A stretch of 64,000 nucleotides of DNA from Clonostachys chloroleuca. Lineage: Eukaryota > Ascomycota > Sordariomycetes > Hypocreales > Bionectriaceae. The stretch covers positions 6,448,001 through 6,512,000 of the forward strand of contig JBANAY010000003.1 of the NCBI GenBank assembly GCA_037952775.1. The letters are read 5' to 3'. Below the pieces are notes generated by a model. That model made no database searches. It was not told the origin of the DNA and saw only the letters and a list, made by a program, of their open reading frames with translations. Shown here in pieces: positions 2,332 to 60,008 of the stretch (within the stretch, counting starts at the first letter, position 1; the number at the start of each line of letters is the position of its first letter). The position numbers and the translations under genes are program-made.

Positions 2332-3126
2332 TGTGGGGGTTGCAAGAGGTGATTCACCATCCCCCCTGTGAACAATGCGCCATTGATTGTATTTAATCTC
2401 TAGGCTAAATCGAGATTTGCAGCAATTTCTCCAACCTTGTGCAAGGCTGCCTGAGCCGAGATGATCAGCCGCATTTCGTATAGTACAACTATTCTGCCCA
2501 TTTGTGAGATTACGGCACAAGTCTCAGTCCAGGGCTGGATGTTCGCCCAAACAAGCCCAATAAGGAAGCCCTGGGACTGTAAAGCAGGGGTTTCTGATCG
2601 CCCGGGGGAGGGAACTGCCTTACATATCATTTTCCAGCCGCACAGTGGTGTGCTGGCAAGCTGGTTGTCTGGTAAGCAGGTCTGCAGATCCGGAGACATC
2701 GCTGGACTGACGTGGATCATTTCCCCTCGCCAGCGAATAACTAGTGGCAATGGTCGCAGATACAACAATGACAAATAGAGTGTCGTACGCAAACTGGGGC
2801 AGTGCAGCATCGACCGGGCGCGATGCCCAATGAGCCCGGCGTTGCAACACTCCCAGCCAGCCTCACTCATTACACGTGGCGAGGCTTGGGTCGATGACCT
2901 GTGACGAGCCCTGCTCAGCCCTCCAGCCCTATGTGTACGTTTGGGCTCGTAGATTGTCGCCACCCCCAGATGGCGCAATTATGAGGCTTTCCCCAGGTCG
3001 ATGGCTGATGGCTGGCAAAGTGTTTCGTTAAAAGGCTGACATTTGCATCTGATTGACGATGAAGACGGTTCCCAATCACTGGTAAATTACGAATAACCTA
3101 CATTACGTTTAATACCTACTTGGACC
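2332..3126. other. divergent intergenic region between two kinase genes
   Basis: About 800 bp between two divergently transcribed kinase genes, presumably holding both promoters. Open frames here have no recognisable domain and no fungal gene structure. I see no clear TATA box. Confidence 0.5.
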
Positions 3127-15535: not shown

Positions 15536-16317
15536 TGTTTGACTGTATCGGGGCGCCGGCAAGATGGTGGGTTCAAGCAAAACTATGATTCTGAAATTTA
15601 TTCAAGGAATCAAATGGTAGGAAGAATCAAAAACGTATAATAGAGACTCAGAGAGAAAGACAGAAAGCCAGAATGAATAGAGATCGGATGGACCTAATAA
15701 GTAGTTAAGTAATTGATGACGAGGCAGCTCTGAGTGTTGGTTGGATGATCTCGCCTCATTCGGTTCTTTGCAGCAATAACCAATAACACTCCAGAGTCTA
15801 CACCAGGCAACAGTCGGGTAGCTTAGCCATTATGTAATATATGTATATAGCCCTTAATAAACTAGTGCAAGGCAATCACTGAGGGCAACAAGGCAACTAC
15901 TATTAAACCATATCTGCAAGTATTACTTGTCATTTGCATTAGCAAGTGTGGGATTGTCGCGCAATATGACCACAAACCGGCAGGCTAGACATGCACCGGC
16001 CAACAACAGTAACACGATTAGACAAGCATATCACTGGTAATGCATCATTTTCTTGATCCGTTGAACCTATTTAAGTTGTGTCTGTGAATCTGTCAACACC
16101 ACTTGGCTGATAATGAGGCTTAGTATATGACAATTCGCTTGAACAACTACTTTGGCAAGAGCAGTAACCTGCAAACAATAATCTACTTTGAGTTGGTCAT
16201 GTACGTTGCAGTCAACGTTTATAAATAAGACTCTCGATGGCATATGTTCACAGATGGACGGAGTTCATATTTATTTCATGGTGTGCTTCATCGTACGATC
16301 CTAACGATGTTAACATA
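15536..16317. other. intergenic, HET gene promoter side
   Basis: About 780 bp of AT-rich sequence. The first 150 bp are presumably the HET gene leader and promoter. No other feature seen. Confidence 0.35.
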
Positions 16318-44289: not shown

Positions 44290-44300
44290 CGGATAACCCG
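44290..44300 (+). promoter_or_regulatory. CGG-N5-CCG site, regulator promoter
   Basis: CGGATAACCCG, 129 bp upstream of the Zn2Cys6 gene start. It matches the cluster-wide pattern CGG-ANAAC-CCG, an inverted CGG pair with 5-bp spacing of the kind bound by Gal4-type dimers. Its place suggests autoregulation. Confidence 0.65.
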
Positions 44301-44428: not shown

Positions 44429-46530
44429 ATGCCGCGAACCTTTACGAGAACCCCGCTTGCATGCGGCTCATGGTGAGTGCCGTCTTCTGAGCCTTGCCCC
44501 GGATGTGGTGGCTCGAACGACGATCTGTGTGCCATTTGCTAACTGCAGTTCCACTCACAGCCGGCGGCGTAAGACGAAATGTGACGGCATGCGGCCCCGT
44601 TGCAAGCACTGCTCTAACAAAAACCTGCAGTGTGTCTGGGCAATGCCTGATCACGATGCCCCGCCCATCGACTCTATTGCACTGACCCCTGACACGTCGG
44701 CGACGGACAGCGTGCCTCACCTCGAAGCGCCGCCGCCGTCCTCCTCCGCGTCCGTATCCGAACCGACGGACAAGGGTTTGCAGTCGTGTCTCGACTTGTT
44801 CTTCGAGCGTCACTTTGCAAGTGACTTTTGTTCGTTCGACTCCAGATCAGACTTTGAGTCTAAATGCAGACAGGAGGCCGTCTTAGCAGCATGTGTCATT
44901 GCGCTCTGTAGTCGATACCTCTCGCTCGAGACTACTCAGACCGAGTTTGGACTCGCCTCACCGAACGATGTGTTCCGTCTTTACATGCGCAGAGCCCGGA
45001 CTCTCGTCAAAATGGCGTCGGATGATCCGAGCGGTAAGTCATCATCCATTGGGAACCCTGTCGAGTTACCGGATCGCTAATCACCCTCAGCATCATGCAG
45101 TTACTCACATCCAGGCTAATCTTGTCCTGGCATTGGCAGAGCTACTCTCTAGCTCTGGATCGAGGCACTGGCTCTTCACAGGCACGGCAATCCGGATGGC
45201 CGAGATCATGCGGTTGAACAAGGAGTTTCACCAGAAACACAGCTACAGGGAACAGGAGATTCGGCGCCGGACGTTCTGGGCCTGTCTCATGTTCGATCGG
45301 GTATTGGCTTACTTCCTTGGTAAGCATAGAACTGTCAACGAGGAGAGCGTTTCCATATCTGTGCCGGGCACGGATCTATCGATGCTCTACCAAGAAGAGA
45401 CAAGAGGCGTCACATTGGCCAGCCTCGCCGCATATGCACGTCCTTCTGATCTGGGGTTGGCTTCGTACTTTATCAAAACAATCATTCTGTGGAGTGATCT
45501 AGCAGACTTTGCTGCATATTCCCGGCGTCGTCTCGAAAAGCATCCCCCCACCAGCCCGGAGAGCCTCTTCTTCGCTCGATCTGAGGCTGCGCGGGAATGG
45601 CGCGACTCTCTACCCGAAGGCCTCCGTTGGAGCATTCGAAACTACGATACCCATTGCGCACTTGGCCAGAAGAAGCTTTTCCTTTCGATGCAGTTCCTAC
45701 TGCATGGCGCTCTATCCATTGCTCACCAATGCTATCTGCCCCATCCTACTCTGTACACTAACCTCGTCGATCTTGTTGACGCGGCTGGTTGGTCTTATCT
45801 CTACAGGGATGAGCCCCTGGTTTCGAATTGTGTATCCAATGCCCTTATCATCGGCGAGATACTGGACTACCTAATGGATCCCGAGCAGGCAAACGACTTG
45901 CCAGCCCTGCAGACTATATGGGTTGCCGCTACTACCTTGACGGCAGCTAACGTGTATCTCTGGATGCAGTACGCCCACGACGAGACCTTCTCCACACCCG
46001 AGTATCAGTTCAAGGCCAGCCGTTACTTTGATCTTGTCCGCCAGCTTGTCTCGTCGTGGACGGGGGAGTGGAAAGTGGCTAATCACTGGCTCCGAGCTCT
46101 TGATGTGATGCGTGATCTCTACAAAGCGGCATATCTCGGCGACGTCAACGAGAGATTCTTCACAAACCATGGCATTGAGTTGAATCCAGAGGAACAGGAC
46201 GAACTGCTCGACGACTTCCGCCCCCAACCAGGAGATGGGTACCCCACGCTGATTGCACTCCCCAACTTGCAGGCATCGGTCAAATTCGCCACGTGCGACA
46301 CATCAGCGAGATCCATTGATATCCCCTCCATTTGGCTGCAGCTTTCCGGTGGTTGGCCGTTCGGATTCGCGGGGCCGGAGTGTGCCGTGGAGCCTCCTGG
46401 TAATATCCAACTGACCAATGATGACTTGGAGATCCCCCCGCTTGATAGTGACGGGAATCCCGATATACTGATCGGCTTCTGTGAATCCACAGCCCCCACG
46501 AACGAGGAGCTCCTTTCTGATAGTCCTTGA
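44429..46530 (+). CDS. Zn2Cys6 transcription factor, likely regulator of the muropeptide cluster
   Basis: 648 residues. Exons are 44429-44472, 44561-45033 and 45101-46530; the sum is an exact codon multiple. The first intron splits the zinc cluster: LACGS from exon 1 joins CRRRKTKCDGMRPRC from exon 2, giving Cys12, 15, 22, 29, 32 and 39 (C-x2-C-x6-C-x6-C-x2-C-x6-C). The second intron (GTAAGT, GCAG) joins DDPS to VTHIQANL. The fungal-specific regulator domain covers about residues 170-430 (IRRRTFWACLMFDRVLAYFLGKHR is typical). The C-terminus is acidic, a possible activation region. It is followed 102 bp later, on the same strand, by the secreted hydrolase. A CGG-N5-CCG site stands in its own promoter. 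Confidence 0.88.
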
Positions 46531-46632
46531 TATTACATGTCACCGCACCACACCGATAAGTACCCCAGTGGGAGAAGTTGATACTCCGTATTCGCTTGGC
46601 AGTTCATCTTCTTCACCTTGCAACTCGCCAAC

Positions 46633-47928
46633 ATGAAGCTTTCGTTCTTGCTGTATCCTGCGTTTGTCTCAGCGGCTCACGCGAATGGCCAGAACCGTGT
46701 ACTCAAGCATGGCAGCCCAGAGTCAGTCGGCTTGTTACCTCAGCCGCTGAACGCGATGATCCAGAACATCACCTCCTACACCGAGCCTCGCAACTATGGA
46801 GACGCATCCTTTCAAGAAGTTAGGGCATTGGAGCCTGGCTCTGTCAACCTAGTCGCTCGCCACGGCACTATCGTCAGTGCTTTCGCGGTTGGCCACAGGA
46901 AGCTCTACGCCGATGCTAATGGCACCCTGCTCGAGCCTCAAGAGCAGGAAAATGCGACCTTTGACACTGTCTATGACATGGCAAGCCTCTCGAAGCTTTT
47001 CTGCGCCATTGCGGTACTCCGGGAGGTCGATGCAGGGAGAATCGATCTAAATCAGACGGTGGCTACATACTTGCCTGAGTTTGGGGCCAATGGGAAAGAG
47101 AACATCACCGTCATCAATCTTCTCACGCACTCAAGCGGCCTCTTGCCGTTGCCAACCCCTGACCTCTGGAAGTCTAATTACTCGTCCATTGATCAGCGAG
47201 TGGCCACCCTTCTGAATCTGCCCCCTCAGGTGCCACCCAGAACGCAGTTCATATACTCTGACATTGGCTTCATGGCCCTGAGATACATTCTTGAGAGGGT
47301 CACCGGTAGAAACTTTGAACTATTGGTCTACTCATACACCATACCACTGGGGATGAACTCTACGTTTTACAACCGTGGAAACCTCGAGGGGCCGCTCAAC
47401 CCTTTTTATCATCGCACCGCACCAACAGAGTTTGAGATCGAGGCCCAAGGCCCAGAGGAACCGGCTAGACCGCAGCCTGTCCGGGGAACCGTCCACGACG
47501 AGAACACGTGGGCTTTAGGTGGACTCTCTGGCCACGCCGGGCTGTTCTCTACCGTCGGCGACGTCGCTATATTCTGCCAAATGATCCTGAACAACGGCAC
47601 CTACGGCGAGCATCGCATCCTTTCCCAGAAATCCGTTGATCTCATATTCACCGATTTCAATGCAAAGTTCCCCGGGAATAACTACGGCACTGGCTTTGCA
47701 CTGAACCAATCGTACACCCAAGGGAGCATGCAGAGCTTGAAAACGGCCAGCCACTCTGGTTTCACCGGCACCACGCTTGCTATCGATCGTCCTTCGGACA
47801 CCTTCTGGATTCACTTTAGTAACCGAGTCCACCCCAGCAGGTACTACGGTACAAATAACCCTGTTCGAAGGGCGATGGGATATTGGGTTGCCAAGAGTCT
47901 TGGTAGGGATGTTCCGTTCCCTAACTAA
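46633..47928 (+). CDS. secreted serine hydrolase of the beta-lactamase fold, AmiE/YbbE-type (putative muropeptide amidase)
   Basis: 431 residues, no intron; ATG 46633 (CCAACATGAAG). It starts with a signal peptide (MKLSFLLYPAFVSAAHA). Class C/S12 catalytic motifs are Ser118-L-S-Lys121 (MASLSK), Tyr208-S-Asp210 (FIYSDIGF) and His374-Ser-Gly (HSGFTGT). GTVHDENTWALGGLSGHAGLFST (286-307) is a signature of the bacterial YbbE/AmiE group and of serine-hydrolase domains fused to NagZ. In Bacillus subtilis AmiE is an N-acetylmuramoyl-L-alanine amidase used with NagZ in muropeptide salvage. Several N-glycosylation sequons (NIT, NAT, NQT, NYS, NST) fit secretion. The predicted role is to strip stem peptides from muropeptides outside the cell; esterase activity is the alternative. 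It lies immediately downstream of the regulator. Confidence 0.8.
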   Translation: MKLSFLLYPAFVSAAHANGQNRVLKHGSPESVGLLPQPLNAMIQNITSYTEPRNYGDASFQEVRALEPGSVNLVARHGTIVSAFAVGHRKLYADANGTLLEPQEQENATFDTVYDMASLSKLFCAIAVLREVDAGRIDLNQTVATYLPEFGANGKENITVINLLTHSSGLLPLPTPDLWKSNYSSIDQRVATLLNLPPQVPPRTQFIYSDIGFMALRYILERVTGRNFELLVYSYTIPLGMNSTFYNRGNLEGPLNPFYHRTAPTEFEIEAQGPEEPARPQPVRGTVHDENTWALGGLSGHAGLFSTVGDVAIFCQMILNNGTYGEHRILSQKSVDLIFTDFNAKFPGNNYGTGFALNQSYTQGSMQSLKTASHSGFTGTTLAIDRPSDTFWIHFSNRVHPSRYYGTNNPVRRAMGYWVAKSLGRDVPFPN

Positions 47929-48350
47929 TGCAAGGATCGGATTGAGCCTCTAGCTTGGATTTGATCGAATGTTTGTCCTAGGTCATTATAGTTTGCTTGA
48001 ATGAAACCGGCACAATAACGACTGGATTGAAAGGTTGCATTTGAAGATGTGTATTTGTTGAAAGCTTGCTCCAAAATGAGCTCGTGCCTGGCTCTCCTCC
48101 AGTTGCCCTGTGGATGCCTTACACGAGGCCGTAGCTCGGCTAGCTCAAGGGTCCTTTGATATGTAGGTTTTGAGATACCGCATACGCCGGCTAAAGTTTA
48201 AGGTAGCATGAGGGAGATATGTAGTTGCCGTTGTAGTGGCTTTCTACATAAGCTTTCTAAGATCTTTAAAAATCAGTTGAAATAACACCTTGACGGGCAT
48301 GTAAACAAGACTTCCATCGTAATTTCCTTTACTCAAAGGGAGGTGGCGGA
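47929..48350. other. convergent 3' region between hydrolase and nagA
   Basis: About 420 bp between two converging genes. It should hold both terminators. No gene seen. Confidence 0.4.
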
Positions 48351-49798
48351 CTATTCAACAGAACTAAGCGGGCTAGTTGGCTCAGGAATCTCTACCCCTT
48401 CCCGACGAAAAACGCGTTTCCCATATTTCCATACTTCATCAATAAGTAGCTGAGAAGTACCATTGTCTGTTTTTATCTCTGAGAAGATTGCGAGGTCTGC
48501 ATCAGCACCGGATGCTAGTGACCCCTTGGTTCCTTCAACGCCCAGCATGGCTGCGGGCGTGCTGGTCACGCTTTTCAAGGCTTGAGGGACAGAAACCCCT
48601 GACCATTCCAGAAAGTTGTTGACACACTCAACGAGTGTGATGGAGCTAAATTTTCAGATGTGTAAGTCACCATGAATAGTTACGACCTCTAGAGAATCAT
48701 ATGACTCACCTTCCGGCGATCTTGTCGGTGCCTTCAAGCCGCAATGTAGGGCCGGTTTTGATGATTTTGCTCGACATCGCCATTTTCCCAGGGGTATGCA
48801 CCGTCAGGGAGACCAACCAAGTGCATGGCATCCGTCACCAAGATACACCCTTCTGGGTGCGCATTATACGCGATCTTGATGACTGTGGGATGTAGATGAA
48901 TGCCATCAGCAATGATGCCAAAGTACGGCCTAGGTGATTTTTCAGCAATGCCCAGCACCCCAAAGATACCCGGATTCCGATGATGTAGCGGCCGCATGGC
49001 ATTGAAGAGATGCGTTATCATGGTTGCTCCCACAGACACAGCACTTGAAGCTTCCTCGTATGTGGAATCGGAGTGTCCGATAGAAACAATGATGCCTCGC
49101 TCGCGTAGTTTGGGGATGAGGGCGAGCATGTTTCCAAGTTCAGGAGCGAGTGTGATTTTCTTAATAGCGGATGTTCCAGAACCCGGTCCTCCGAGATTCT
49201 CCCTGCCATAGCAAGACTCGATATCAGCAAAGCTGTTGGCTTCGAGAAGGACATTCACATCGTGAATACCGTTCTTTCTCGGGTTTAGAAACGGTCCCTC
49301 AACGTGGGATCCAAGTGACTCTGCCCCATGGTCGCCAACGCGAGGGCTATTAGGGCGAAGAAAAGGGAGTGCCTGCATTTGTTAACAATGTTAATGAGAT
49401 GATCAACCGAAGCATAAGCTCACCTTCTGATATAGCGTCGGCTTCTGGCTGGTGAGAGTAGGAACATAAGAGGTTACACCAGTCTGAACTAACTTCCGAT
49501 TCACTTCTGCGATGGATTTGGCATACGATGACCCTTCGGGGGCTGTAGAGAAGTTGAAGCCAAAAGCCCCGTTCAGCTGCACATCAATCAGGCCGGGAGA
49601 GATTATTCGTCCCTCAAGGTCGATCACTTCATCGGGAAGAGTCTGGTTGTCGAAGAACGCTGCCTGGCTGGAGAGAATAGTCCCAGTCTCAGAGCTCACC
49701 CAAAGATCCTCAAAGACGAACCTGTCATTCCGGACCAGGCGACAGTTGGTAAACTTGACAATGCCACTTGACTTTGGCGCGTAGAGTTGTCCAGGCAT
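48351..49798 (-). CDS. nagA: N-acetylglucosamine-6-phosphate deacetylase, with apparent +1 frameshift
   Basis: Hydrolyses GlcNAc-6-P to glucosamine-6-P and acetate in the cytosol. Exons are 49424-49798, 48710-49372 and 48351-48645, with two GT-AG introns. Conserved NagA elements are SHVEGPFL (His148, Glu150), IGHSDSTYEEA (His225), THLFNAM (His246), ADGIHLHP (His284) and LVTDAM (catalytic Asp306), plus the C-terminal GADADLAIF. Between WENGDVE and KIIKTGPTLRLEG, at about 48769-48778, the frame shifts by one base. The exon sum is also one over a codon multiple. An intron cannot explain it, because the only AG/GT pair gives 32 nt. If real, the protein ends at 48734 without its last roughly 125 residues. 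The gene faces the secreted hydrolase and shares its strand with anmK and murQ. Confidence 0.85.
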
Positions 49799-50990
49799 AT
49801 CTTCGTATTGTAAATTGCTGAGAGAACAAAAGATTCGATTTTCAACTGGCCCTGAGTGTACAAGTAGGCTTTGGTTGTAGGGTTTCTTGATACTGGAGGG
49901 CGTATATGCAATGCAATAGTTATCAAATAACAATGAAGCTACTAGACCTTGCCACACATTCAGCATATGTGGCTGGCGGCTCGCTATGAATTGTATAACG
50001 AAGTGCCGGCATTCTCCACTGAGATTAGATCGACATGAAACGTAGCATCCAAGCAAACGTCTTATCCAAATCATGGAAATCCCAATGGCTCCAATTTCTT
50101 TCCATGAAGACTTGGCTCCCGTATGTACGCCGATTGGCCATGAAATGGGTCCCAATGATGGGTCGAGGGCGGATTTTCCGTCACGCGACCCTGAGTCATG
50201 GCTATGCCTCTTGACTAATTCTAGTAATGTCAATATCATCAGTGAAGGGGATAATACACAGACGATTGTACTGGTTAGCCTGACTCTATCATCGGGTTCT
50301 CCGCGGCGAATAGCCCACGGGATTTCCGGCTCCCCACTATACCTCGCTAAGATGCTTAGGAGGCTGCGACATACGTAGCCTCTTATTATTTAGCTGCTAG
50401 AAGGGCAAATTAGACAGAGCGTATCTAAGCGAACGACACGCTGGAGTTAGCTAGGTTGAGAGGGAAAAAGAAGCAGAACAACGCTATACCTATGATCTTC
50501 ATGTACGTAGGTGTACCTAATGATTGCCCCCACTCCAAAAGATATGAGGGTTGATCCGAAAGAGAGTCATAAAATGTTGTTCCTGATGTGGGAAATACTC
50601 TGAAGTCAATATATAGGTCAATTTTAGGACTGTCAAAGAAGAAATGAGGATTTGTTGTGGGTAAATATACCTGAGGTTAGAAGCCAGCCTATGTCATGGT
50701 ATACTCTGTTAGAACGGTGAGACTCAATGTTGTAAGCAGCCGAATAGTGATCATTGAGACTTTCTTGTAGTAGATGGGTATTTAGCAAAATCCATTTCTT
50801 GCAGATGCACATCTGAAATAATCACTTGCATAGAAACAATTAACATATCATTTCCGAGCGAGATCTCACCATAAAGAACCAATGTTCCTGCAAAACCATC
50901 TGCCAACGCCTTACTTTGTCTAATCTGATGACTTTGATATAGAGATACAACTCGGTATTGTGACTAACTTCTGAACTGAGCTGAACGTGT
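49799..50990. other. nagA promoter and anmK 3' region
   Basis: 1.2 kb. It contains a CGG-N5-CCG site at 50293-50303. The open frame continuing upstream of the nagA start has no conserved content. Confidence 0.45.
50293..50303 (-). promoter_or_regulatory. CGG-N5-CCG site, nagA promoter
   Basis: The reverse strand reads CGGAGAACCCG, 495 bp upstream of the nagA start. It shares GAACCCGATG-type flanking bases with the regulator-promoter site (CCCGATG in both). Confidence 0.6.
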
Positions 50991-52475
50991 TTACATTTGA
51001 ATACGCCCCAACACTCCGTTTTCCAAGAACCCTTCACTTTTAGCCACAATCTCGATAATCTGCCGATAATTCTCACCAGGTGTGATGACCCCCATGACAG
51101 CAGGCTCTGTAGACTCTGAATCATCCGCAAGTGGAACAGTGCGGCCACTAATTGACAGAAACCCCAATAGCCCAAACATGACGGCCTCCTTCGCGTTTGG
51201 CTCAATCTTGGTGGGTGCCTCGCTGAGCCTGGTCACTCGGCTAGCAGGAAAGCGTGTTTGCAGGTGCTTCATAATGTTTGGGTTGTATGCACCACCGCCA
51301 CAGATGTATATTTCATCGATTGTCTTGCCCTTTTCAAGGTGAGGCACGACGTATTGCTCGTACGCGCGGGCGATCGACTCGGCAGTGATTCTTGTAATAG
51401 TGGCAATGATGCCTTGAGAGCTCATGTGGCGAGATCTCATCTTTTCAACGAGTGCTCGTGCGACATCATCCGAAAAGAGCTCTCGCCCTGTTGTTTTGGG
51501 TGGTTTGACTTGAAAGTAAGGCTCTCCGGCTAGGTAGTTGTTGACAACCTCTTCATCGATCTCGGACTCTCCCTGCAATCCAAGTGCTCCATCTTTGTCG
51601 AAATGGGCCTCGCCGTTACTTATGATTCTCATTGCCGCATCTATGAAGACATTTCCCGGGCCGGTGTCAAATGATAGATAAGTTGGGCGGGACTTTTCCG
51701 TACTTGATTTCTTAGCTGGCAACACACTTGCGTTTCCTGTAAATCTATCAGTTAATGATGCTCCATCTATTTTCACACGGTGCTTTTATACACACCTATG
51801 CCGCCTATGTTTTGGCTGATACGTGTCAGCTCAGGATGGGAGAGGAGGCAGGCCTCGAAGAACCCAGCAAGTGGTGCTCCCTGACGCCCTGCAGCCAATT
51901 CGGCAACGCGAAAACCGCTGACCACTGTCCTGATTTCAAGTTGCTTAGTTAGAACATGTATTCAACAAAGACGGAGAGAAAGAAAGATTAGGTAACTTGC
52001 TTCTTTGTCTTGTGGGCGATGACGGCAGGCTCTGCCATCTGGAGGGTCGAGCGATGCTCTCCAAGCGGTTGGTGCCATAATGTCTGCCCATGGCTGGCAA
52101 TGAGGTCAACGTGAGCCAAGTCAATTCCAGATTCTATGACTGCGCGGGAGAACTCGCGGCCGAGCGCGAAGTTGAGATCGCATACTTCAGCAAGAGACGT
52201 TGCGGCCTCTTTTTCATTGGGCCGACATAAGCGGAGGACTTGATTTCGGATAGCAGGGTTGACAGGTATCTCTACATAAGACAGCAGATCGATGTGCACA
52301 TCGTTCGATGATGGGATAGTTGAGATCCGACAATATGCAACGTCGATGCCTGTTGCAATAGTTTAGCTGAGTTGCTTGATACAAAGCAGATGCCAGCTCA
52401 CTAACCATCAATGCTTGTCCCGCAGTTGAGGCCCAGCACGTTAAGCGATAGCATGTCGGATGTAGGCAAGGTCAT
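50991..52475 (-). CDS. anmK: anhydro-N-acetylmuramic acid kinase-like protein
   Basis: 432 residues in four exons: 52406-52475, 52001-52349, 51796-51929 and 50991-51736, an exact codon multiple. Bacterial AnmK hydrates and phosphorylates 1,6-anhydro-MurNAc to MurNAc-6-P. Family motifs are [12 protein letters not shown] (residues 15-26; bacterial MSGTSxDG), [38 protein letters not shown] and [12 protein letters not shown]. Two points are odd. Intron 2 appears to be GC-AG (donor GCAAGT), giving the smooth [13 protein letters not shown]. And Glu150 occupies the position of the bacterial catalytic Asp (DxAxGGQG), with Arg155 replacing a Gly. The sequence is longer than the roughly 370-residue bacterial enzyme. 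ATG 52475 is chosen; ATG 52454 is possible. It lies between nagA and murQ on the same strand. Confidence 0.88.
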
Positions 52476-53049
52476 TTCCAGAGTTTGTTTCACAAAGAGG
52501 GCTGCGAACCGTTTTGTCTCTACTGCCGAGATAAAGCTTTACCCGTATCTCAGGACTGATCCTGTTCTCATCTTACCACGTCTACATGTATTGAGGAGAT
52601 GAGTAGATCAAGTTGATATACGCCTGCCAGGGAACAGGATGTTCATGGTCAAGTCTCGTGTGAAAATCAAGTCTCGAGCTTAATCCGGATCTGGCCCGGT
52701 TTGCGGCTAACTTGGTGGTTGGCGGGTCTGCCAGTTGTACGGAGAACCCGAAGTCTTTCGCGTCACGAGACCTCCTCTCCTCGATTGAGTTCTAGCGAAA
52801 ATGAGATAAGCTCCCAAATGGTTCGGTCATTGATGAAGCCTGCTCCACACTACTACAAGTCAATTGTCGCATGAAGACAGACATTGAAACGAGCCTGGCC
52901 CTCAGCCTCGAGAGTTCTAGTCGGGACATCGCTTATTCTTGAGGCCGTTGGAGGACAAAGTATTTCAAAATTAGTTGCAAATGATATTATCTATGTCTCG
53001 TCTAGGCTAATGGATGCGAAAGGTGTCATGTCTATGCTAGCTCTAGGTA
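52476..53049. other. anmK promoter and murQ 3' region
   Basis: 570 bp holding the anmK promoter with one CGG-N5-CCG site (52740-52750) and the murQ 3' end. No gene. Confidence 0.45.
52740..52750 (+). promoter_or_regulatory. CGG-N5-CCG site, anmK promoter
   Basis: CGGAGAACCCG, 265 bp upstream of the anmK start. Identical in its 11 bases to the nagA-promoter site. Confidence 0.65.
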
Positions 53050-54310
53050 CTATCTCATCTCCAGTGCAAGTCTCAATGATCCGTGGTAAGCCTCTAGCTT
53101 TGACCTACCCTCTTCCGGCGAACAGCCTAGAGTAGCTACTAGGATACTGAGCTTGACATGGCCATCGCAGTTGGCTAAGACTTGGTCTAGAACATCCTCT
53201 TTGTTGATATCAAGCGCTGCCGTAGATGGCACCACCATCCGAACAACGCGTCTTGCCCTGTCACGTAGCTTCTCGTTGGACATTTTCAAGTCCACCATCT
53301 ACCGATATTCAGTTAACCGATGCTGCTTGTTTTCATAGAGCAGAGAAATGTAACGTACCAAATTACCGAAAGTTTTCCCAATCTTGATTTGTGATCCAGT
53401 TGAGATCATGTTGAGTATCTACCAATGAGTCAGCGATAGAAAATACAGCCATGGATGCAGAGAGATTTGAGGCATAAGACTTACCATTTTTGTGGCCGTT
53501 CCAGCCTTGAGCCGAGTACTTCCTGTTACAACTTCGGGCCCTGTGACGCACTCAATCAGGACATCACAAAGTCCTTTCAACGAACTTGGCTGTACGCATG
53601 CCAGTCCAACCGTGGCAGCGCCAACGGAGCGGGCATATTTCAACCCTCCAAGCACATACGGAGTTCTTCCGGAGGAGGCAATCCCAACGACAACGTCGTC
53701 CTTACTCAGCGTTGGTGTCAAGCGGATGAGGTCAGCCGCGCCATCTGGTTCGGAGTCTTCAGCGCCTTCGACCGCGTTTCGAATTGCATGATCGCCGCCT
53801 GCAATCAACCCAATGAATTGATTCAGCGGTGCTGAGAAAGTCGGGGGGCTGAAAACCAATTGCTCTACCAGTCAACCCAAAGTGTTCCATAGCTGGGATA
53901 ACAAATGTATTGTAGCATCAGTACTCACATCTCGGAGGCGTCCAAGACTCCTAAGCTAACAGCATTCAATACTTAGTAGGGGCGTGAAATCGACACGGAG
54001 CTCTTGTCTTACCGCCCACTCGTCCCAGCGCCAATGTAGATGACGCGTCCGCCTACCAACAGCCGGGGCACAATCATGTCGATCGTGGCTGCGATCTGCG
54101 GCAGGCATTTCTGCACAGCCTTGGAGACTGTTGCGTCCTCTTCATTGATCACCTCTGTGGCATGTTAGGAATGCCCCATTGTGCTCGTGTGATTTCGATC
54201 ATTTCTTCAGTGGAGGACGCACCGCAGAGACGAGTAGTTGACACAATGTCAATGTCCCATGTCTTAGAGTTCTTTTGCTCCGTCTGGAGGTCCGCCAGGC
54301 TCGAAGGCAT
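53050..54310 (-). CDS. murQ: N-acetylmuramic acid 6-phosphate etherase
   Basis: Cleaves the D-lactyl ether of MurNAc-6-P to give GlcNAc-6-P and D-lactate. 309 residues in six exons: 54223-54310, 54013-54154, 53929-53955 (27 bp), 53485-53848, 53359-53418 and 53050-53298; the sum is an exact codon multiple. SIS-domain and etherase motifs are VINEEDATV, VIYIGAGTSGRLGVLDASE, GLIAGGDHAI, AVEGAED, VVVGIASSGRTPYVLGGL, GPEVVTGSTRLKAGTATK and NLMVDLKMSN. Glu85 and Glu116 match the two catalytic glutamates of E. coli MurQ (83 and 114). The C-terminal helix bundle (KEDVLDQVLANCDGHVKLSIL) is complete. MPSSLADLQTE is chosen as the start because bacterial enzymes begin similarly; in-frame ATGs at 54355 and 54415 exist. 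Divergent from the transporter. Confidence 0.93.
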
Positions 54311-55427
54311 TGTGTCAAGTCCAGGGGGCGGAGGGACAAGAGGAGAAAGAATCATGCAAGCGGCGGGGGCGAAGATGGAGAACCAATGCCGGCCTCTTGT
54401 GAAGCATGCAGCCAAGGACGTGAGGAAAGATACTGGATAAAATCGAGATAGGATATAAAGAGAGTCTCAGATTTGGTGTCTTCGCACACACATCGGTTGT
54501 TCGTACGTACAATAAGATAAGATGGAATTAGCCGCCTCCTTTCCAGGGTAAAATCGCAGCTTGGACTTGAAATCCGGTCACCCGGAAGCTTGTTTTCGGA
54601 TGACCAGGTTCGATAAATGAAAACAATGAATCTTCCTGGAAGAAAAGACGGGTTTTCCGGAGGGTAGTGGGGCCCGCGGCAGAGAATATCGTCTCGCCAT
54701 GTCGGACAACCCGGCACTACTCGTTTGGTACACAGTCTCGACCAGCTTTATACAATCAATTATTTTCAGGGTGCCGAGGTAAATTTGCGGGTTCCCTGGG
54801 CCAGCAATTAGCTTTGTACACTTACGTAAAGAGCGTGATTCTCTTTATGCAAGGAACAAGATCAAATTAGTAAGGCGACATCACGTTGCCATATCCGCGG
54901 GGAAATAGGGGTTACATGCGGGGAAAGACTTCCAAAGATGCATGATGATCCTTTGATGACACTTGCCACCAAGTTACTCTTATCATGAATGAAGATATCG
55001 TGGCCATGGGTTGTGGAGGCTCAATATCCTGGGGTGTTTACGTAGACTAGGACGCACCTCTCTTCGGGTGCATAATATGGGTTTCCACCAAACCAAACCA
55101 GCACCATTGATAAATTCTCAGGGAGCTACAAGGGATACTGGTGTACTGATAGCCAAGATACTTTATCCCCTCTGATTCGGCAATGAGTTGGTGTTAGCGT
55201 TGATAGCAGATTCTCGGCTGTGGGGTCAGTTTGGGGGACCCCAGTTTTAAGGTAGAACCGTTCCATTCCGCCCGAGTATTTAATCTTGAGCTCCAAAAAA
55301 GTCAGAGCCATGCAACCTCAACTTGTTCTCTTCAGTCTTCATCCTTTCTCCACGTCTCGATCCAGTAGAAAGTGCTATATTTCATTGCTCACAACTAAAT
55401 TTGGAGCTCTCATCACCTCTATCAGCA
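54311..55427. other. divergent promoter between murQ and the transporter
   Basis: 1.1 kb shared by murQ and the MFS gene. It contains a CGG-N5-CCG site at 54703-54713 and further CGG-rich words nearby (CCGGTCACCCGG at 54574-54585). Confidence 0.5.
54703..54713 (+). promoter_or_regulatory. CGG-N5-CCG site, murQ/transporter promoter
   Basis: CGGACAACCCG, 393 bp from the murQ start and 715 bp from the transporter start. Fits CGG-ANAAC-CCG exactly. Confidence 0.65.
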
Positions 55428-57481
55428 ATGGGTACCACGTTGCACAGCGTTCGTGTCGCCGTCTGGGGTGAAGCCCCAGATACTCCAGAGGAGCGCAAGG
55501 TGTGTCCATGCTCCCAATCAGTTGGGTCTGTAGATTCAATACTAATACCACATGCATTGTGAATAGCTTCTCCGGAAAATAGACTTTTTCATCCTAGTAA
55601 GCACTCTCTTCGGGATTACTCTCTTAAGAAGAACCAAATATTAACCAAGATACACAGACATACTGCTGCGTGGCGTTTTTCTTCAACTACCTCGGTATGA
55701 GCTTACGATTATCTGATGACTGACCTTGAACTTGTCTTATAATATTTCGACAGATCGCGCCGTGTTGGGAAATGCGTATGTGTCCGGCATGAAAGAAGAC
55801 ATCAACCTCACAGGCAATGAGTACAACATTCTGGTCACGGTTCTCTCTGTTGGATGTGGGTGCCATCTCCTGGCCGTTCTGAGCTCGAAGGTTGCTAACA
55901 GGTACGAAGACATTATCGGACAAGTTCCTCATGGCCTCATCATCCAGAAAGTTCGCCCACGCATATGGTTCCCGCTCATGACTCTTGTGTGGGCACTCCT
56001 CACCATGGCATGCGCAGCTTGTAACTCCTTCGGCCACCTCGTGCCTGTGCGATTTTTTCAAGGCATCGCTGAAGCATCGACCTACAGTGGCACACAGTAC
56101 ATCATCGGTAGTTGGTACAAGGGACCAGAGGTCGGAAAGCGAGTGGGCCTGTTTCAGGCTTCTGGAATGGTTGGGACAATGTTCGCTGGTATTCTTATGA
56201 CTGCCATTTATAATACCATGAACGGCGTCGCGGGGTTATCCGGTTGGAGATGGGTAAGTTTCATTCGAATTTTCTCTCCCACGGTCCGGGGACCGATTGC
56301 TCATCTAACGTGCTCCTCACCCAGTCTTTCATCATTGACGGCATCATCACCATCCCGGTCGCCGTCTTTGGATATTACTTTTTCCCCGACTTACCCGAGA
56401 CGACCCAGGCGTTTTACCTGAAGCCCCACGAGAAGCAGCTTGCACTATCGCGTCTACCCCCCAAGAACCCAGAGGGTCACAATATTGGCCCCTCTCTGAT
56501 CAAGAGGGTCCTTTTTGCGCCAAATTTGTGAGCCGTCCCACATCAACTTTCAAGATACGTGGTCGCTAATTGTTTTCTCAGTTGGATCTTTACCATTTTC
56601 TGGACCCTCGGAGGAGCCCTCGAAGCGTTCTCTACTCAGACCTGCATGGTCCTCTGGATGAAGGCATCCAAGCTCTTTACAGTCCCAGAGAATAACACCT
56701 ACCCACTGGGGATAACAGCCATTGGTAGATTTCCCCAAGTGTTTCTGTAGAGGACATGAAAACTAATTCTTTACTCTAGGCATCTTTCTCACGCTTTTGA
56801 CGTCCATCTTAATCGACGCCACAGGCGTTCATGGCCCGTACGGCTTGATTGCGTGCGGTGTTCAACTTGTCACTTGCGTAATTATTCTCTGTTGGGACCT
56901 TGTCGGCACCGAAGCCAAGATGGCTGGATTTTGTGAGTCTTGATAGAGCCCGTAATTTCATGCTAGTTGGAGCATTTGACTGATCGTCTTTGTCACTGTT
57001 AGATTTGGCCGGAACTGCCTACCTTATCCAGCCCGTTGTTTTCACGTGGGCTAACAAGATCCTCGCAAGAGATGGCGACGACGCTGCACGTGCTGTGATC
57101 CTATACGCAATGAATGGTGAGGCTCTTATGTGACTTTCTACTAGACTATCTGCTTATCTGGAATAGGGTCATCCTCGGTTCTGTTTTCTTTCTGGGGTAT
57201 CGCCCTTTACCCGGCCACTGACGCCGCCACAGTAAGTTCTTAGTCCCAGTGTCTATTTGAGGATAAACCCATACCTGACCTGTATTTCTCAGGGATTCCG
57301 GAAAGGTGCCATTGCTATGGTAGTTGTCTCCGTTCTCCTCGCCGCTTGGATTGGTGTCGTTTGGTGGCAGGATAGAAGGACTCAAGTGCCGGAAATTACT
57401 CAAGGCGAGCTTGAGACCAAGATTGAGGAAGGTGCAGAGATGGAAGTCATACCTACCAAAGATGGACATGCCAAGAATTAA
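55428..57481 (+). CDS. MFS transporter, anion:cation symporter (Dal5/Liz1-like) type
   Basis: 487 residues from eleven exons (55428-55499, 55567-55596, 55658-55694, 55754-55859, 55902-56253, 56325-56527, 56582-56724, 56780-56932, 57003-57116, 57167-57231, 57293-57481), an exact codon multiple. About twelve membrane helices. Family marks are FFFNYLDRAVLGNAYVSGM after helix 1, a QVPHGLIIQKVRPRIWFP loop, RFFQGIAEA and the central loop PDLPETTQAFYLKPHE (family P-x-T-x-x-W/F-L). The C-terminal tail is cytosolic and acidic. Relatives carry carboxylated solutes such as allantoate, nicotinate, pantothenate and biotin. MurNAc and its anhydro form also carry a carboxylate, so by context it may import one of them. 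Divergent from murQ. The fourth donor is slightly uncertain. Confidence 0.88.
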
Positions 57482-57921
57482 GAGGCTGTGGTTCGGAAGG
57501 TCAAAATACCGGCCGGTGGCTGATCTCTGTTCGTAACTTTGACTACTTACATAGGAGGAATCACGTAATCGATAAATAGCCACATTGGCTGCTTAATTTG
57601 TGGTGAACTATTCGTGGTATTTGTGGAGGGGCACTGGTGATGATCGCAACAGGGAATTTCGCGGATTGTATCATAAGACTTGATCTATGAGTTTGAAGTA
57701 TCATGCTGTACGAGGTCTGGTTATATGAAAGAGCAATCCGGTCTCCAAGTGTGTATTTTTACGATACAAGAAATATCATTATCATTTGGGCAAGGACCAA
57801 AATAGGCAAGAAATGCGAAAAAAAAAATCGAAAAAAAAAATAGAACACTTCAGATTTAAACTATTGATTGATTGCTGGGGAGTGGAATCTGACTTCTCAT
57901 AATCCTACCGTCATCGACCTG
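57482..57921. other. convergent 3' region between transporter and nagB
   Basis: 440 bp between converging genes. A-rich runs near 57816-57841 are T-runs on the nagB strand and may mark its terminator. No gene. Confidence 0.4.
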
Positions 57922-59128
57922 CTAAGCCTTAATCTCGATTCGCGAACTCATACTATCTAGAGTAGGCTCAGGAGTCACGGTCCTGGAAATCGGCCGAGAG
58001 AGCACTGGACTATTGGCACGAAGCAGATATGGTTGTACTTCAATGGGCTTGAGAGCCACCGGAGACTGTATCTGACCGTTACCGTTGGTGTCACTAGAGA
58101 CTGCTACACGCGCCCCTTTACGAAGGCTTCGGGGAGGAGCCTGATCAAAACCTTCTTCCCTAGCAACCTTTTCGATCGATTTGAAATACTTGATTTGAGT
58201 TGTTAGCGTTATGATCGACATGGCGTGTAGATGGCGGTTCCGAACCTTGACAGTCTTCACTTGCAGCTCGAGCGTCGCATCTTCGTCCGCAACCACCATG
58301 GAGTGTCTATGGAGCTGAAGGGCAGAAAGCGTCCACATGTGGTTCACACCGTTCTCAATGCACTTTTGCAGCGCTACTGCCTTGCGGGCTCCCAAGGCAA
58401 CTGTGACAACCTCCCTAGCATCCAAGATGGTCTGAACTCCAACGGTCAGTGCCATTTTTGGCACTTGGTTGACATCGTTGTCGAAAAACCTCGAGTTAGC
58501 CAATATAGTGTCATAGGCTAGGGTCTTCACGCGAGTGCGGCTGGCCAAGCTTGAGCCGGGCTCGTTGAAGGCAATGTGACCATCTTCGCCGATCCCCGCG
58601 AGGAACAGATCAATACCCCCGACTGCTTCGATTGCCGCTTCGAATTGAGAGCACTCTGATTCCAGATCTTCTGCATTACCATTTAGAATGTGAACATTCT
58701 CAGGTCTCACGTTCACGTGGGAGAAAAAATAATGCCACATGAAGGAATGGTAGCTTTGTGGGTGATCCCTCGGGATGCCGACATATTCGTCCTAGACGTA
58801 GGTTGTGGGTGAGAAAATAGCAAATATGAAGGAAGAAGCTTTCTTCCGCGTCAACGTACCATATTAAAGGTAATGACATGTTCAAATGATATCTACAGTA
58901 AAATTAGTTCAAGCCTCAGTTGAATAGAATGGTGCAAACTCGGCGTACCTCGCCGGCCTTGTGTTTTGCAGTCAGGATTCGGTACACCTCAATAGGACTA
59001 CTGCCAGTAGGGAGGCCTAACACAAAAGGACGCTCCAGGCTAGGGCCAAATTCTTTGATTCGTGTTGTTATATAGTTGGCCACGTATTCTGCCACTGAAG
59101 TCGAATCCTCGCGCACAATGAGTCTCAT
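57922..59128 (-). CDS. nagB: glucosamine-6-phosphate deaminase
   Basis: Converts glucosamine-6-P to fructose-6-P and ammonia. 360 residues; exons 58949-59128, 58860-58892 (33 bp) and 57922-58791, an exact codon multiple. Motifs are [13 protein letters not shown], the spliced [19 protein letters not shown] (Asp72 right after the second splice) and [15 protein letters not shown] (Asp141, His143, Glu148). The four catalytic residues fall at the same numbers as in E. coli NagB. A C-terminal extension of about 95 residues, rich in Ser/Pro with [15 protein letters not shown] at its start, is usual in fungal enzymes. It is the last step of the cluster. A (GAA)n run in the leader region (59161-59185) is a pyrimidine tract on its strand. 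Confidence 0.94.
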
Positions 59129-60008
59129 AGTGACGATATTTCTGTGCGCTAATTGTTAAAGAAGAAGAACAAGAAGAAGAAGAAGCAGAGGTACAACGAG
59201 TAAGATTGTTTATCTTCCAATGAATAAGAAATCTGTGCATGCCAAACCCTCTGGAATGTATAAATGTCGAGAGGTGGCGTAACAAGCGCCGGCCAATTAA
59301 ATCTCCCATTGGATAGAGCTTGATTTGCTACGAACGGCTTTTCCGTTACAGCACTAGAGTCTATGCCATTGAGTGCCGACTATACCGAAGTATTGGAATC
59401 GGCCCATCTCTGGAACTCTTTTATAAGGCGACTACGCTACGGTGTTGACAGCGCTTTGGCATGTGGAGATCTGATGCAGTTATCCCGAGATAAAGTCGTG
59501 CTTATCACGCCCCCAAGTACCGCAGTGGAGCTTGAAATTGCCATTGGTGACTTACGACTCATGTAGGCACTGGCGGAGTTCCCGGACAACCAGGGAGGAC
59601 TCGTCGGATAACCCGCGACGTCGAAAAGGAGAGAAACCGGGCTGGCTGCGGCAACAGGTTATAGCTATCATGTTCCAGTAGAAGCTTGAAGTGCTCGCGC
59701 AAATGCATTCGATAGGATGAGTTTCAGAATAATGAAATTCACTGTAGGCTAAATATTAAACATGTAGTGGGGCCACCACCAAACCCTGCCACCGAAGTTC
59801 CTGTTCCGGCTATACATACGGTTGATTTGAGGGTCAGAGGATCGATATTCCTACTCTTGGCGCAGTATGAGTTTCAAAAGGATTCTGGCTGAATCCTGTT
59901 GTTGCATTTGCGGTCTACTCGTTGCCGCGCTCCCTTCCCCCTTTAACTTTCTTCTCCATGAATCTTCATCCATTAAACAACCTTGAAAGTAACCGGCTGC
60001 TGAGCAAC
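59129..60008. other. divergent promoter between nagB and the SDR gene
   Basis: 880 bp with one exact and one near-match CGG-N5-CCG site, 22 bp apart. The open frame 59363-59566 has no domain. Confidence 0.45.
59605..59615 (+). promoter_or_regulatory. CGG-N5-CCG site, nagB/SDR promoter
   Basis: CGGATAACCCG, identical to the site before the regulator. It lies 477 bp from the nagB start and 394 bp from the SDR start. A one-mismatch copy, CGGACAACCAG, lies at 59583-59593. Confidence 0.65.

What the first reader, a model, noticed from the sequence alone, without database searches (positions are those of the whole stretch)
44429..59128. A fungal gene cluster that encodes a bacterial-type muropeptide (MurNAc) salvage pathway
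Within 15 kb lie a zinc-cluster regulator, a secreted AmiE/YbbE-type hydrolase, NagA, AnmK, MurQ, an organic-anion MFS transporter and NagB. MurQ and AnmK have substrates that occur only in bacterial peptidoglycan, and fungi have no MurNAc of their own. With NagA and NagB they form a continuous route: (anhydro)MurNAc to MurNAc-6-P, to GlcNAc-6-P plus D-lactate, to glucosamine-6-P plus acetate, to fructose-6-P plus ammonia. GlcNAc catabolic clusters are known in fungi. I am not aware of a functional description of one extended to muramic acid. It would let the fungus feed on cell walls or wall turnover products of bacteria.
Basis: partly seen in the sequence, partly recalled or inferred. Interest (0 to 1): 0.96.

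Follow-up and report, generated by a model that had tools for sequence, protein, structure and literature searches.

The report
Fungal gene set for eating peptidoglycan
A soil fungus of the genus Clonostachys appears to carry a bacterial-type set of genes, partly clustered and with a shared promoter motif, for taking apart and eating the muramic acid sugar of bacterial cell walls, something for which we found no functional account in a fungus.

Summary
At 44.4-59.1 kb lie genes for a Zn2Cys6 regulator, an AmiE/YfeW-family hydrolase, NagA, an AnmK-family kinase, MurQ, an MFS transporter and NagB; the MurQ model is identical to a Clonostachys chloroleuca protein. MurQ passes the etherase equivalog cut-off. 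In the 80 kept bacterial loci encoding relatives of the hydrolase, NamZ lies beside it in 80 and MurQ nearby in 67. NagA and NagB are paralogues of those in a separate canonical GlcNAc cluster. New: 10 of 19 CGG-N5-CCG palindromes in the window fall in the cluster's promoters. A strict form occurs twice or more within 10 kb at only two other places in the genome: beside a NamZ exo-muramidase and beside a MurNAc/GlcNAc-kinase-like gene, both picked by family search beforehand. Corrections: the kinase is nearer to fungal levoglucosan kinase than to bacterial AnmK, though in a separate clade; free MurNAc needs a kinase outside the cluster; NagA has a frame break. Best reading: a peptidoglycan-utilisation regulon. 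No growth or enzyme data were available; five literature searches found no functional description.

The parts
44429..46530 (+). Zn2Cys6 (zinc-cluster) transcription factor, 3 exons, 648 aa; probable pathway regulator
   Evidence: Zn_clus 36.5 bits and Fungal_trans 78.4 bits, both over cut-off; model
46633..47928 (+). AmiE/YfeW (PBP4B)-family serine hydrolase, 431 aa, signal-peptide-like N-terminus (judged by eye); S118, K121, Y208-S209-D210, H374 and G376 invariant in 12 aligned fungal proteins
   Evidence: PF00144; best NCBIfam PBP4B 154.5 bits, below its cut-off of 385; alignment; bacterial relatives next to NamZ in 80 of 80 and MurQ in 67 of 80 kept loci
48351..49798 (-). NagA (GlcNAc-6-P deacetylase) paralogue, approximate limits; reading frame shifts within exon 2 near 48.77 kb
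   Evidence: TIGR00221 149.5 bits for the exon 2 piece, below the whole-protein cut-off of 226; frames; 70% to the NagA of the canonical GlcNAc cluster
50991..52475 (-). AnmK-family sugar kinase, 4 exons (intron 2 modelled as GC-AG), 432 aa; inferred anhydro-MurNAc kinase
   Evidence: PF03702; PDB levoglucosan kinase 335 bits vs AnmK 140 bits; separate clade from LGK; the 91%-identical C. rosea orthologue fails every NCBIfam AnmK equivalog cut-off listed
53050..54310 (-). MurQ, MurNAc-6-P etherase, 6 exons, 309 aa; E85 and E113 match H. influenzae MurQ E89 and E117
   Evidence: TIGR00274 358 bits, cut-off 302; PDB MurQ 276 bits vs GKRP 84 bits; residues
55428..57481 (+). MFS transporter, 11 exons, 483 aa; organic-anion type recalled from family motifs; inferred importer
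   Evidence: PF07690 131 bits; model; starts divergently from MurQ
57922..59128 (-). NagB, glucosamine-6-P deaminase paralogue, 3 exons, 360 aa
   Evidence: TIGR00502 288 bits over cut-off 237 for exon 3 alone; against NagB of the canonical GlcNAc cluster 77% over 201 residues, 61% over an N-terminal 56 and 40% over a C-terminal 84
44290..44300 (.). CGGATAACCCG upstream of the TF (strict motif)
50170..50328 (.). three CGG-N5-CCG sites upstream of NagA (50170, 50293 strict, 50318)
52740..52750 (.). CGGAGAACCCG upstream of AnmK (strict motif)
54649..54713 (.). two strict sites in the divergent MurQ/MFS promoter (54649, 54703)
59335..59615 (.). three CGG-N5-CCG sites upstream of NagB (59335, 59574, 59605 strict)

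Best explanation
The locus is the core of a fungal peptidoglycan-utilisation regulon. Outside the cell, the unlinked NamZ would cut MurNAc from glycan ends, the AmiE-type hydrolase of the cluster would remove stem peptides, and a YkfC-like NlpC/P60 peptidase would trim the peptides. An MFS carrier imports MurNAc and anhydro-MurNAc. Inside, the cluster's AnmK-family kinase makes MurNAc-6-P from anhydro-MurNAc, and an unlinked NAGK/MurK-like kinase would make it from free MurNAc. MurQ splits MurNAc-6-P into GlcNAc-6-P and D-lactate; dedicated NagA and NagB paralogues carry GlcNAc-6-P to fructose-6-P. A zinc-cluster regulator, probably the one in the cluster, binds CGG-N5-CCG palindromes at the four loci. 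Shown by sequence: gene families, linkage, separate NagA/NagB paralogues, motif. Inferred: substrates, secretion, transport direction, regulator-motif pairing, growth on peptidoglycan.
For: MurQ is over the equivalog cut-off with two aligned glutamates in place, and the fungal-named MurQ proteins form one clade with bacterial relatives outside. MurQ, AnmK and AmiE genes carry neighbouring locus tags in two Fusarium species (ACJ41O_013618/013621/013622; ACHAPJ_006653/006654/006655), MurQ and AnmK in a third, and MurQ and AnmK are merged in two gene models. In the 80 kept bacterial loci for the hydrolase, Actinomycetes by their titles, NamZ is beside it in 80 and MurQ nearby in 67; Pfam on two of them shows GH3 beside NamZ in both, and in one the order GH3-NamZ-AmiE-MurR-MurQ. 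The same fungus has its own NamZ (PF07075 224 bits, PF20732 139 bits). Motif: 10 of 19 window palindromes lie in 5.7% of the window, binomial 2.2e-8; none of the other 17 spacings tested is enriched. The strict form occurs 85 times in 59.4 Mb, and two or more within 10 kb only at this cluster, the NamZ locus and the kinase locus. A separate GlcNAc cluster exists and its fetched stretch lacks the strict motif.
Against: The AnmK is closer to levoglucosan kinase than to bacterial AnmK and its substrate is unproven. NagA has a frame break. NamZ and AmiE would release free MurNAc whereas AnmK acts on anhydro-MurNAc (both recalled), so the two halves meet only if the unlinked kinase does what is proposed; that kinase matches a solved MurNAc/GlcNAc kinase only weakly (61 bits). 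The AmiE score is below the PBP4B cut-off, and the 102 bases between the TF and AmiE hold no palindrome (nearest 46452, inside the TF gene and not the strict form). The YkfC-like gene shows an in-frame stop that may be an intron or a lesion, and its SH3b match is below cut-off. A GH25 lysozyme gene and a second BadF-type hit carry no nearby strict site. Linkage is not universal: in Mariannaea MurQ and AnmK lie on contigs of different length.
Confidence: 0.84

Rival explanations
1. The kinase is a levoglucosan (1,6-anhydroglucose) kinase and the cluster is an anhydrosugar/amino-sugar scavenging cluster that happens to include MurQ.
For: Best solved relatives are Lipomyces levoglucosan kinases, 335 bits vs 140 bits for Pseudomonas AnmK. 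Six fungal proteins of this family were tried as levoglucosan kinases in yeast; in crude extracts one (Rhodotorula) was clearly above the empty-vector control (PMC9476349, passages).
Against: The gene lies in a clade of 33 fungal proteins separate from the 65 rows that group with LGK. Where the two bacterial AnmKs agree, both clades are conserved and just one clade keeps the bacterial state, the cluster clade keeps it in 7 columns and LGK in 3. It is linked to MurQ in other fungi, and MurQ has no known role in levoglucosan use (recalled).
Confidence: 0.1
2. It is a duplicated GlcNAc/chitin catabolic cluster; MurQ and AnmK are passengers with altered function.
For: NagA and NagB are 70% and 77% identical to the canonical cluster's genes over the best aligned stretches; Clonostachys eats chitinous hosts (recalled).
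Against: The canonical set (hexokinase, NagB, Ndt80-type regulator, NagA) stands elsewhere. The window cluster has no hexokinase and a different class of regulator, and its strict motif is absent from the fetched canonical stretch but present at NamZ. MurQ keeps the aligned glutamates.
Confidence: 0.06
3. The hydrolase is a fungal beta-lactamase-like or esterase protein for antibiotic detoxification, unrelated to sugar salvage.
For: The fold is shared with class C beta-lactamases and esterases.
Against: In the 80 kept bacterial loci its relatives sit beside NamZ in 80 and near MurQ in 67; its best NCBIfam family is PBP4B, whose gene lies in the E. coli murQ operon (PMC5061867, passages).
Confidence: 0.1
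4. Defence or sensing: the fungus degrades muropeptides as signals or for antibacterial attack, not as food.
For: In ants a horizontally acquired murQ was read as defence (PMC13320244, passages); muropeptides act as signals (PMC6448482, title and listing only).
Against: Dedicated NagA and NagB paralogues in the cluster point to use of the carbon and nitrogen; the MurQ model shows no obvious signal peptide (by eye) and its known substrate is a phosphosugar inside the cell (recalled).
Confidence: 0.12

Closest known systems
Bacillus subtilis murQ-murR-murP-amiE-nagZ-ybbC (namZ) muropeptide rescue cluster
   Same: AmiE-, NamZ- and MurQ-type proteins; outside hydrolysis, then inside etherase (gene layout from PMC5061867 passages; ybbC = NamZ recalled)
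   Different: No PTS MurP seen in the cluster; kinases instead; MFS carrier; NagA and NagB in the cluster; introns; Zn2Cys6 regulator and palindromic sites; parts spread over at least four loci
E. coli murQ-murP-yfeW operon with anmK
   Same: MurQ, PBP4B/YfeW-family hydrolase and an AnmK-family kinase feeding MurQ (operon from PMC5061867 passages)
   Different: Same as above; the fungal AnmK is about 31% identical to Pseudomonas AnmK and closer to fungal LGK
Actinomycete GH3-NamZ-AmiE-MurR-MurQ loci (e.g. L060)
   Same: Relatives of the fungal AmiE (40-46%) and of the fungal NamZ (41-49%) side by side
   Different: No AnmK found in any of 80 loci; fungal MurQ is 37-51% to theirs, against 52-53% to named planctomycete and Thermoflexales proteins
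RON1-type GlcNAc catabolic cluster of Trichoderma reesei (PMC4950302)
   Same: NagA and NagB and their end product fructose-6-P; clustered in ascomycetes
   Different: That cluster type is present separately in this genome; Ndt80-type regulator; the paper's main text holds neither 'muram' nor 'etherase' (passages)
Levoglucosan kinase of Lipomyces starkeyi
   Same: Sister fungal clade to the cluster's kinase, 42% identity
   Different: Separate clade; several bacterial AnmK residues kept in the cluster clade are changed in LGK

Membership tests
MurNAc-6-P etherase MurQ (TIGR00274) | Score over the equivalog cut-off | tested here: met
   358.1 bits, cut-off 302
MurNAc-6-P etherase MurQ (TIGR00274) | Catalytic glutamates (role recalled, not read) | tested here: met
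   E85 and E113 align with H. influenzae E89 and E117
MurNAc-6-P etherase MurQ (TIGR00274) | Etherase activity | not testable with these tools
   needs enzyme assay
Glucokinase regulatory protein | About 620-aa two-SIS architecture of solved GKRP | tested here: not met
   309 aa; PDB MurQ 276 bits against GKRP 84 bits
Anhydro-MurNAc kinase AnmK | NCBIfam equivalog cut-off | tested here: not met
   C. rosea orthologue P0121 (91% identical) best 330.9 against 387; an LGK-clade protein (P0173) passes at 391.3, so the test does not discriminate
Anhydro-MurNAc kinase AnmK | Pfam AnmK fold and catalytic Asp (Pa D182, role recalled) | tested here: met
   PF03702 over cut-off; Asp kept
Anhydro-MurNAc kinase AnmK | Specificity for anhydro-MurNAc over levoglucosan | tested here: inconclusive
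   7 against 3 discriminating columns favour AnmK; no ligand data
Levoglucosan kinase | Groups with LGK in a tree | tested here: not met
   Separate clades, FastTree supports 0.93 and 0.98
AmiE/PBP4B (YfeW) hydrolase | PBP4B equivalog cut-off | tested here: not met
   Best family, but 154.5 bits against 385
AmiE/PBP4B (YfeW) hydrolase | Bacterial relatives in NamZ/MurQ loci | tested here: met
   80 of 80 kept loci with NamZ, 67 of 80 with MurQ
AmiE/PBP4B (YfeW) hydrolase | MurNAc-L-Ala amidase activity and secretion | not testable with these tools
   no signal-peptide predictor, no assay
Canonical fungal GlcNAc cluster | Hexokinase and Ndt80-type regulator beside NagA and NagB | tested here: not met
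   Neither seen among the window cluster's genes; both present at C3:18.52 Mb
NamZ exo-muramidase | NamZ_N and NamZ_C domains in a full-length gene | tested here: met
   223.9 and 139.4 bits on the 430-aa model

The most novel reading that the evidence does not exclude
A eukaryote has assembled, from bacterial-type genes and duplicated fungal amino-sugar genes, a complete peptidoglycan-eating pathway (exo-muramidase, amidase, stem-peptide peptidase, two muramic kinases, etherase, deacetylase, deaminase, transporter) under one zinc-cluster regulator whose palindrome ties together at least four unlinked loci. A related form, MurQ fused to a NAGK-type kinase, is spread in other fungi (Aspergillus, Beauveria, Purpureocillium, Pluteus), so muramic acid catabolism would be a widespread, overlooked fungal trait.
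Probability: 0.65. Interest if true: 0.92.

Novelty: new variant of a known kind. Interest (0 to 1): 0.86.

Why it matters
Peptidoglycan is a large pool of carbon and nitrogen in soil, and its muramic acid is usually taken to be recycled by bacteria (general knowledge). A regulated fungal pathway would make fungi direct consumers of bacterial walls, give a new angle on the ecology of a mycoparasite used in biocontrol, explain fungal proteins now named only by similarity (MurQ, AnmK, NamZ, YfeW), and give a test case of how a bacterial catabolic pathway becomes a eukaryotic regulon. It also bears on the fungal levoglucosan kinase clade, whose natural substrate could be re-examined.

Tried and rejected
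Rejected: that MurQ is a GKRP-type regulator; that the cluster is the ordinary GlcNAc cluster; that the kinase is an LGK orthologue; that actinomycetes gave the fungal MurQ (the AmiE relatives kept by the one bacterial scan are actinomycete and their NamZ matches the fungal one, but MurQ is nearer to other bacteria). Strict motif looked for in 16 fetched stretches of the genome (155 kb): absent from those with the 6-phosphogluconolactonase/NagB-like gene at C3:32.13 Mb, the canonical cluster, the third NagA locus and the second AnmK-type locus. GH25 lysozyme (C4:9.21 Mb) and a second BadF-type hit (C4:4.51 Mb): no strict site near. Four of the 72 remaining single motif sites were read (L116-L119): two lie inside open frames; no peptidoglycan gene was recognised, by eye on the longer frames only, so lone sites look like chance. 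Structure prediction was not used.

Led nowhere: fungal synteny by DNA (no fungal genome collection on hand), MurQ-kinase fusions at full length (protein searches spent), literature on ligand contacts of AnmK, the MurNAc etherase review PMC11131651 (not held).
Full report
Host and genes. The window lies in a 59.4 Mb genome held as 4 contigs. My MurQ model is 100% identical over 309 residues to a protein of Clonostachys chloroleuca, so the source is that species or a very near relative. Spliced models for six genes were built by hand; NagA was not joined because its frame shifts within exon 2. Family evidence: Zn_clus and Fungal_trans, MFS_1; Beta-lactamase fold, AnmK, SIS/GKRP_SIS_N, Glucosamine_iso; TIGR00274 MurQ 358 against cut-off 302, TIGR00502 NagB 288 against 237 for exon 3 alone, TIGR00221 NagA for the exon 2 piece at 149.5, below the whole-protein cut-off of 226.

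MurQ. The best solved relatives are bacterial MurQ (276 bits); GKRP follows far behind (84 bits). The glutamates at H. influenzae positions 89 and 117 are kept (their catalytic role is recalled). The 40 fungal-named MurQ proteins in my tree fall in one clade of 54 (support 0.999; the other 14 were not counted as fungal-named by me), which also holds basidiomycete and yeast proteins; none of the 67 actinomycete MurQ lies in it. This fits one acquisition from bacteria, but the sample is the best 120 listed of 8000 scored hits plus those loci. The MurQ-linked Pfam model GKRP_SIS_N has one match in the genome.

Kinase: a correction. The cluster kinase matches Lipomyces levoglucosan kinase at 335 bits and Pseudomonas AnmK at 140, so its substrate cannot be taken for granted. 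It is not the LGK orthologue: in a FastTree tree of 100 full-length rows it lies in a clade of 33 fungal proteins, against 65 rows with LGK (same after mending one mistyped letter). Of 100 columns where the two bacterial AnmKs agree and both fungal clades are conserved, 62 are the same in all, 23 are shared by the two fungal clades only, 5 differ in all three, 7 keep the bacterial state in the cluster clade alone and 3 in the LGK clade alone. NCBIfam does not help: the C. rosea orthologue fails every AnmK cut-off listed while an LGK-clade protein passes one. The genome holds another AnmK-type gene at C3:20.776 Mb, 29% identical, and a degraded copy at C3:4.384 Mb, 57-61% identical in the three longer matched pieces and 50% in a short fourth, with stops and frame breaks.

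Linkage in other fungi. From protein listings only (each capped at 120): AmiE, MurQ and AnmK carry tags ACJ41O_013618, 013621, 013622 in Fusarium nematophilum and ACHAPJ_006653, 006655, 006654 in F. lateritium; MurQ and AnmK are CEP52_004236 and 004235 in F. oligoseptatum; they are merged in one model in F. decemcellulare and Paramyrothecium foliicola. They share a longest contig, judged by equal contig length, in C. rosea IK726, Dactylonectria (with AmiE), Penicillium riverlandense, Cephalotrichum and Naematelia, and do not in Mariannaea. That is 10 of the 11 taxa that I could pair; same-contig is weaker than adjacency. F. falciforme and Purpureocillium lilacinum were left out because the listed proteins come from different strains, and many taxa appear in only one of the two lists. 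The AmiE-like proteins of P. riverlandense and Mariannaea lie on contigs of other lengths than their MurQ.

The hydrolase. Residues of an SxxK motif, a YSD motif and an HxG motif are invariant in 12 aligned fungal proteins. NamZ lies directly upstream on the same strand in 80 of 80, MurQ on the same strand in 67 of 80; AnmK was found in 0 of 80. Of the 13 loci without MurQ, 3 are under 15 kb long. Pfam on L060 gives GH3, NamZ, then an HTH_6-SIS regulator and MurQ around the AmiE gene, and a GH3 gene beside NamZ in L038; three further L038 frames matched nothing. This places the fungal protein in the AmiE family of muropeptide loci. The E. coli murQ operon carries yfeW (PBP4B), and B. subtilis has murQ-murR-murP-amiE-nagZ-ybbC (PMC5061867, passages); PBP4B is the best NCBIfam match of the fungal protein, though below cut-off.

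The rest of the pathway. Four searches of the genome for further peptidoglycan families (PF01869, PF01183, PF07075, PF00877) gave five places. A NamZ gene lies at C3:4382868-4384202, two exons, 430 aa, both NamZ domains, just upstream of the degraded AnmK copy. A BadF/NAGK-type kinase lies at C3:192479-193670 (376 aa after splicing); its best solved match is a MurNAc/GlcNAc kinase at 61 bits, from the unspliced frame. Its N-terminal motif (VLCVDAGGTSCKA...GGPCNV) recurs at the tail of MurQ models of Beauveria, Purpureocillium, A. nidulans, Pluteus and an unnamed protein: 5 of the 12 MurQ tails that I printed, chosen mainly because they were long. Three of the five have a NagK family hit, two show only the motif. 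So other fungi seem to fuse MurQ to this kinase type, which points to it as the kinase for free MurNAc; no full-length fusion was seen. A gene with a YkfC SH3b2 stretch (24.9 bits, cut-off 27.4) and an NlpC/P60 stretch lies at C3:4989.2-4990.1 kb, with an in-frame stop between them. A GH25 lysozyme is at C4:9.21 Mb, and a second BadF-type hit at C4:4.51 Mb.

Separate GlcNAc cluster. Hexokinase, NagB, an Ndt80-type regulator and a NagA-type gene lie together at C3:18.52-18.53 Mb (that NagA piece matched no Pfam family and is named by its 71% identity to the window's NagA), the RON1-type cluster of PMC4950302 (passages). The window's NagB is 77% identical to its counterpart over 201 residues (61% and 40% over two shorter pieces) and NagA 70%. 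The window cluster therefore has its own downstream enzymes.

Shared promoter motif. Zinc-cluster proteins often bind CGG-Nx-CCG (recalled). I counted all spacings 0-17. Only N5 is enriched: 19 in the window, 10 in the six upstream regions (3675 of 64000 bases), binomial 2.2e-8, about 4e-7 after 18 spacings; the other spacings give 0-2 in those regions. The TF upstream region was set at 500 bases by choice, and one of the six regions (before AmiE) holds no site. A strict form, CGGANAACCCG, was then defined on the cluster's sites: 6 in the window, all in cluster promoters (TF, NagA, AnmK, two at MurQ/MFS, NagB). That part is circular. Genome-wide it occurs 85 times, against 174 for the reversed control. 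Two or more within 10 kb occur at three places only: this cluster, the NamZ locus (C3:4382545, 4385244, 4385307) and the kinase locus (C3:192329, 193943, 193962). The last two had been picked by family search before any motif was looked at. With the 79 sites outside the window thrown at random, any three within 3 kb arose in 9 of 20000 runs; two such places were seen. Of the five places from the four family searches, three carry a strict site shortly before the gene: 139 bases before the kinase's first ATG, 312 before NamZ, 131 before the first ATG of the YkfC-like frame (single site); in the window the TF site is 128 bases before its ATG. The two sites beyond the kinase and the two beyond the AnmK relic have no gene assigned. 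None occurs in the fetched stretch of the canonical GlcNAc cluster. The regulator in the cluster is the natural candidate for binding but this was not tested.

Literature. Five searches for fungal MurQ, MurNAc or muropeptide catabolism gave no functional description in what was listed. One search returned no paper; searches matched 21,385 and 162 papers, of which 20 and 25 were listed. PMC9159588 names a Monascus murQ by KEGG matching only, within a chitin map (passages). PMC13320244, on ants, states that horizontal transfer of murQ had not been reported before (passages). [quoted passage not shown] Only openly licensed papers were searchable.

Verdict. The finding is real and its reading largely right, with the corrections on kinase substrate, the free-MurNAc step and the NagA break. 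The new evidence of a shared motif across unlinked peptidoglycan genes raises it from a cluster to a probable regulon. Function remains inferred from sequence.

Noticed in passing
window 48770 (approx.), within NagA exon 2: Reading frame of NagA shifts by one beside a run of A; real lesion or assembly error. Two other NagA-type genes, open over the matched stretch, exist in the genome.
   Followed up: partly
L015 4483-5085 (G000 C3:4384482-4385084): Degraded copy of the cluster-type AnmK, with stops and frame breaks, just downstream of the NamZ gene; suggests NamZ and AnmK once sat together.
   Followed up: partly
L023 9052-9831 and L024 392-5272 (G000 C3:12.929-12.935 Mb): A third NagA-type gene beside a hexokinase, an Ndt80/PhoG-type gene and a GFO/IDH/MocA oxidoreductase: another possible amino-sugar cluster.
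   Followed up: partly
L013 4490-5758 (G000 C3:20.776 Mb): A single-exon second AnmK-family gene, about 29% identical to the cluster gene and of another type, near an MFS sugar-transporter-like ORF (named by eye).
   Followed up: partly
proteins P0046, P0044, P0038, P0048, P0054: MurQ models of A. nidulans, Beauveria, Purpureocillium, an unnamed protein and Pluteus run on into the start of a NAGK/BadF-type kinase: a probable MurQ-kinase fusion.
   Followed up: partly
proteins P0043, P0047, P0055, P0060, P0092: A [Candida] jaroonii MurQ and four unnamed ones carry a different C-terminal extension of about 100 residues or more; the three scanned (P0043, P0047, P0060) matched no NCBIfam family there. 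Purpose unknown.
   Followed up: partly
L033 4585-5865: MFS/UNC-93-like transporter frame divergent from the NAGK-like kinase, with the motif between them; possible second importer.
   Followed up: partly
L035 5166-6128: YkfC-like SH3b plus NlpC/P60 frame with an in-frame stop between the two parts; intron or lesion not resolved.
   Followed up: no
window 51930-52000: AnmK intron 2 appears to be of the rare GC-AG type.
   Followed up: no
window 3063-4943 and 13256-15601: HeLo-domain/kinase-like gene and a HET-domain gene, of the kind seen in fungal self/non-self recognition.
   Followed up: no
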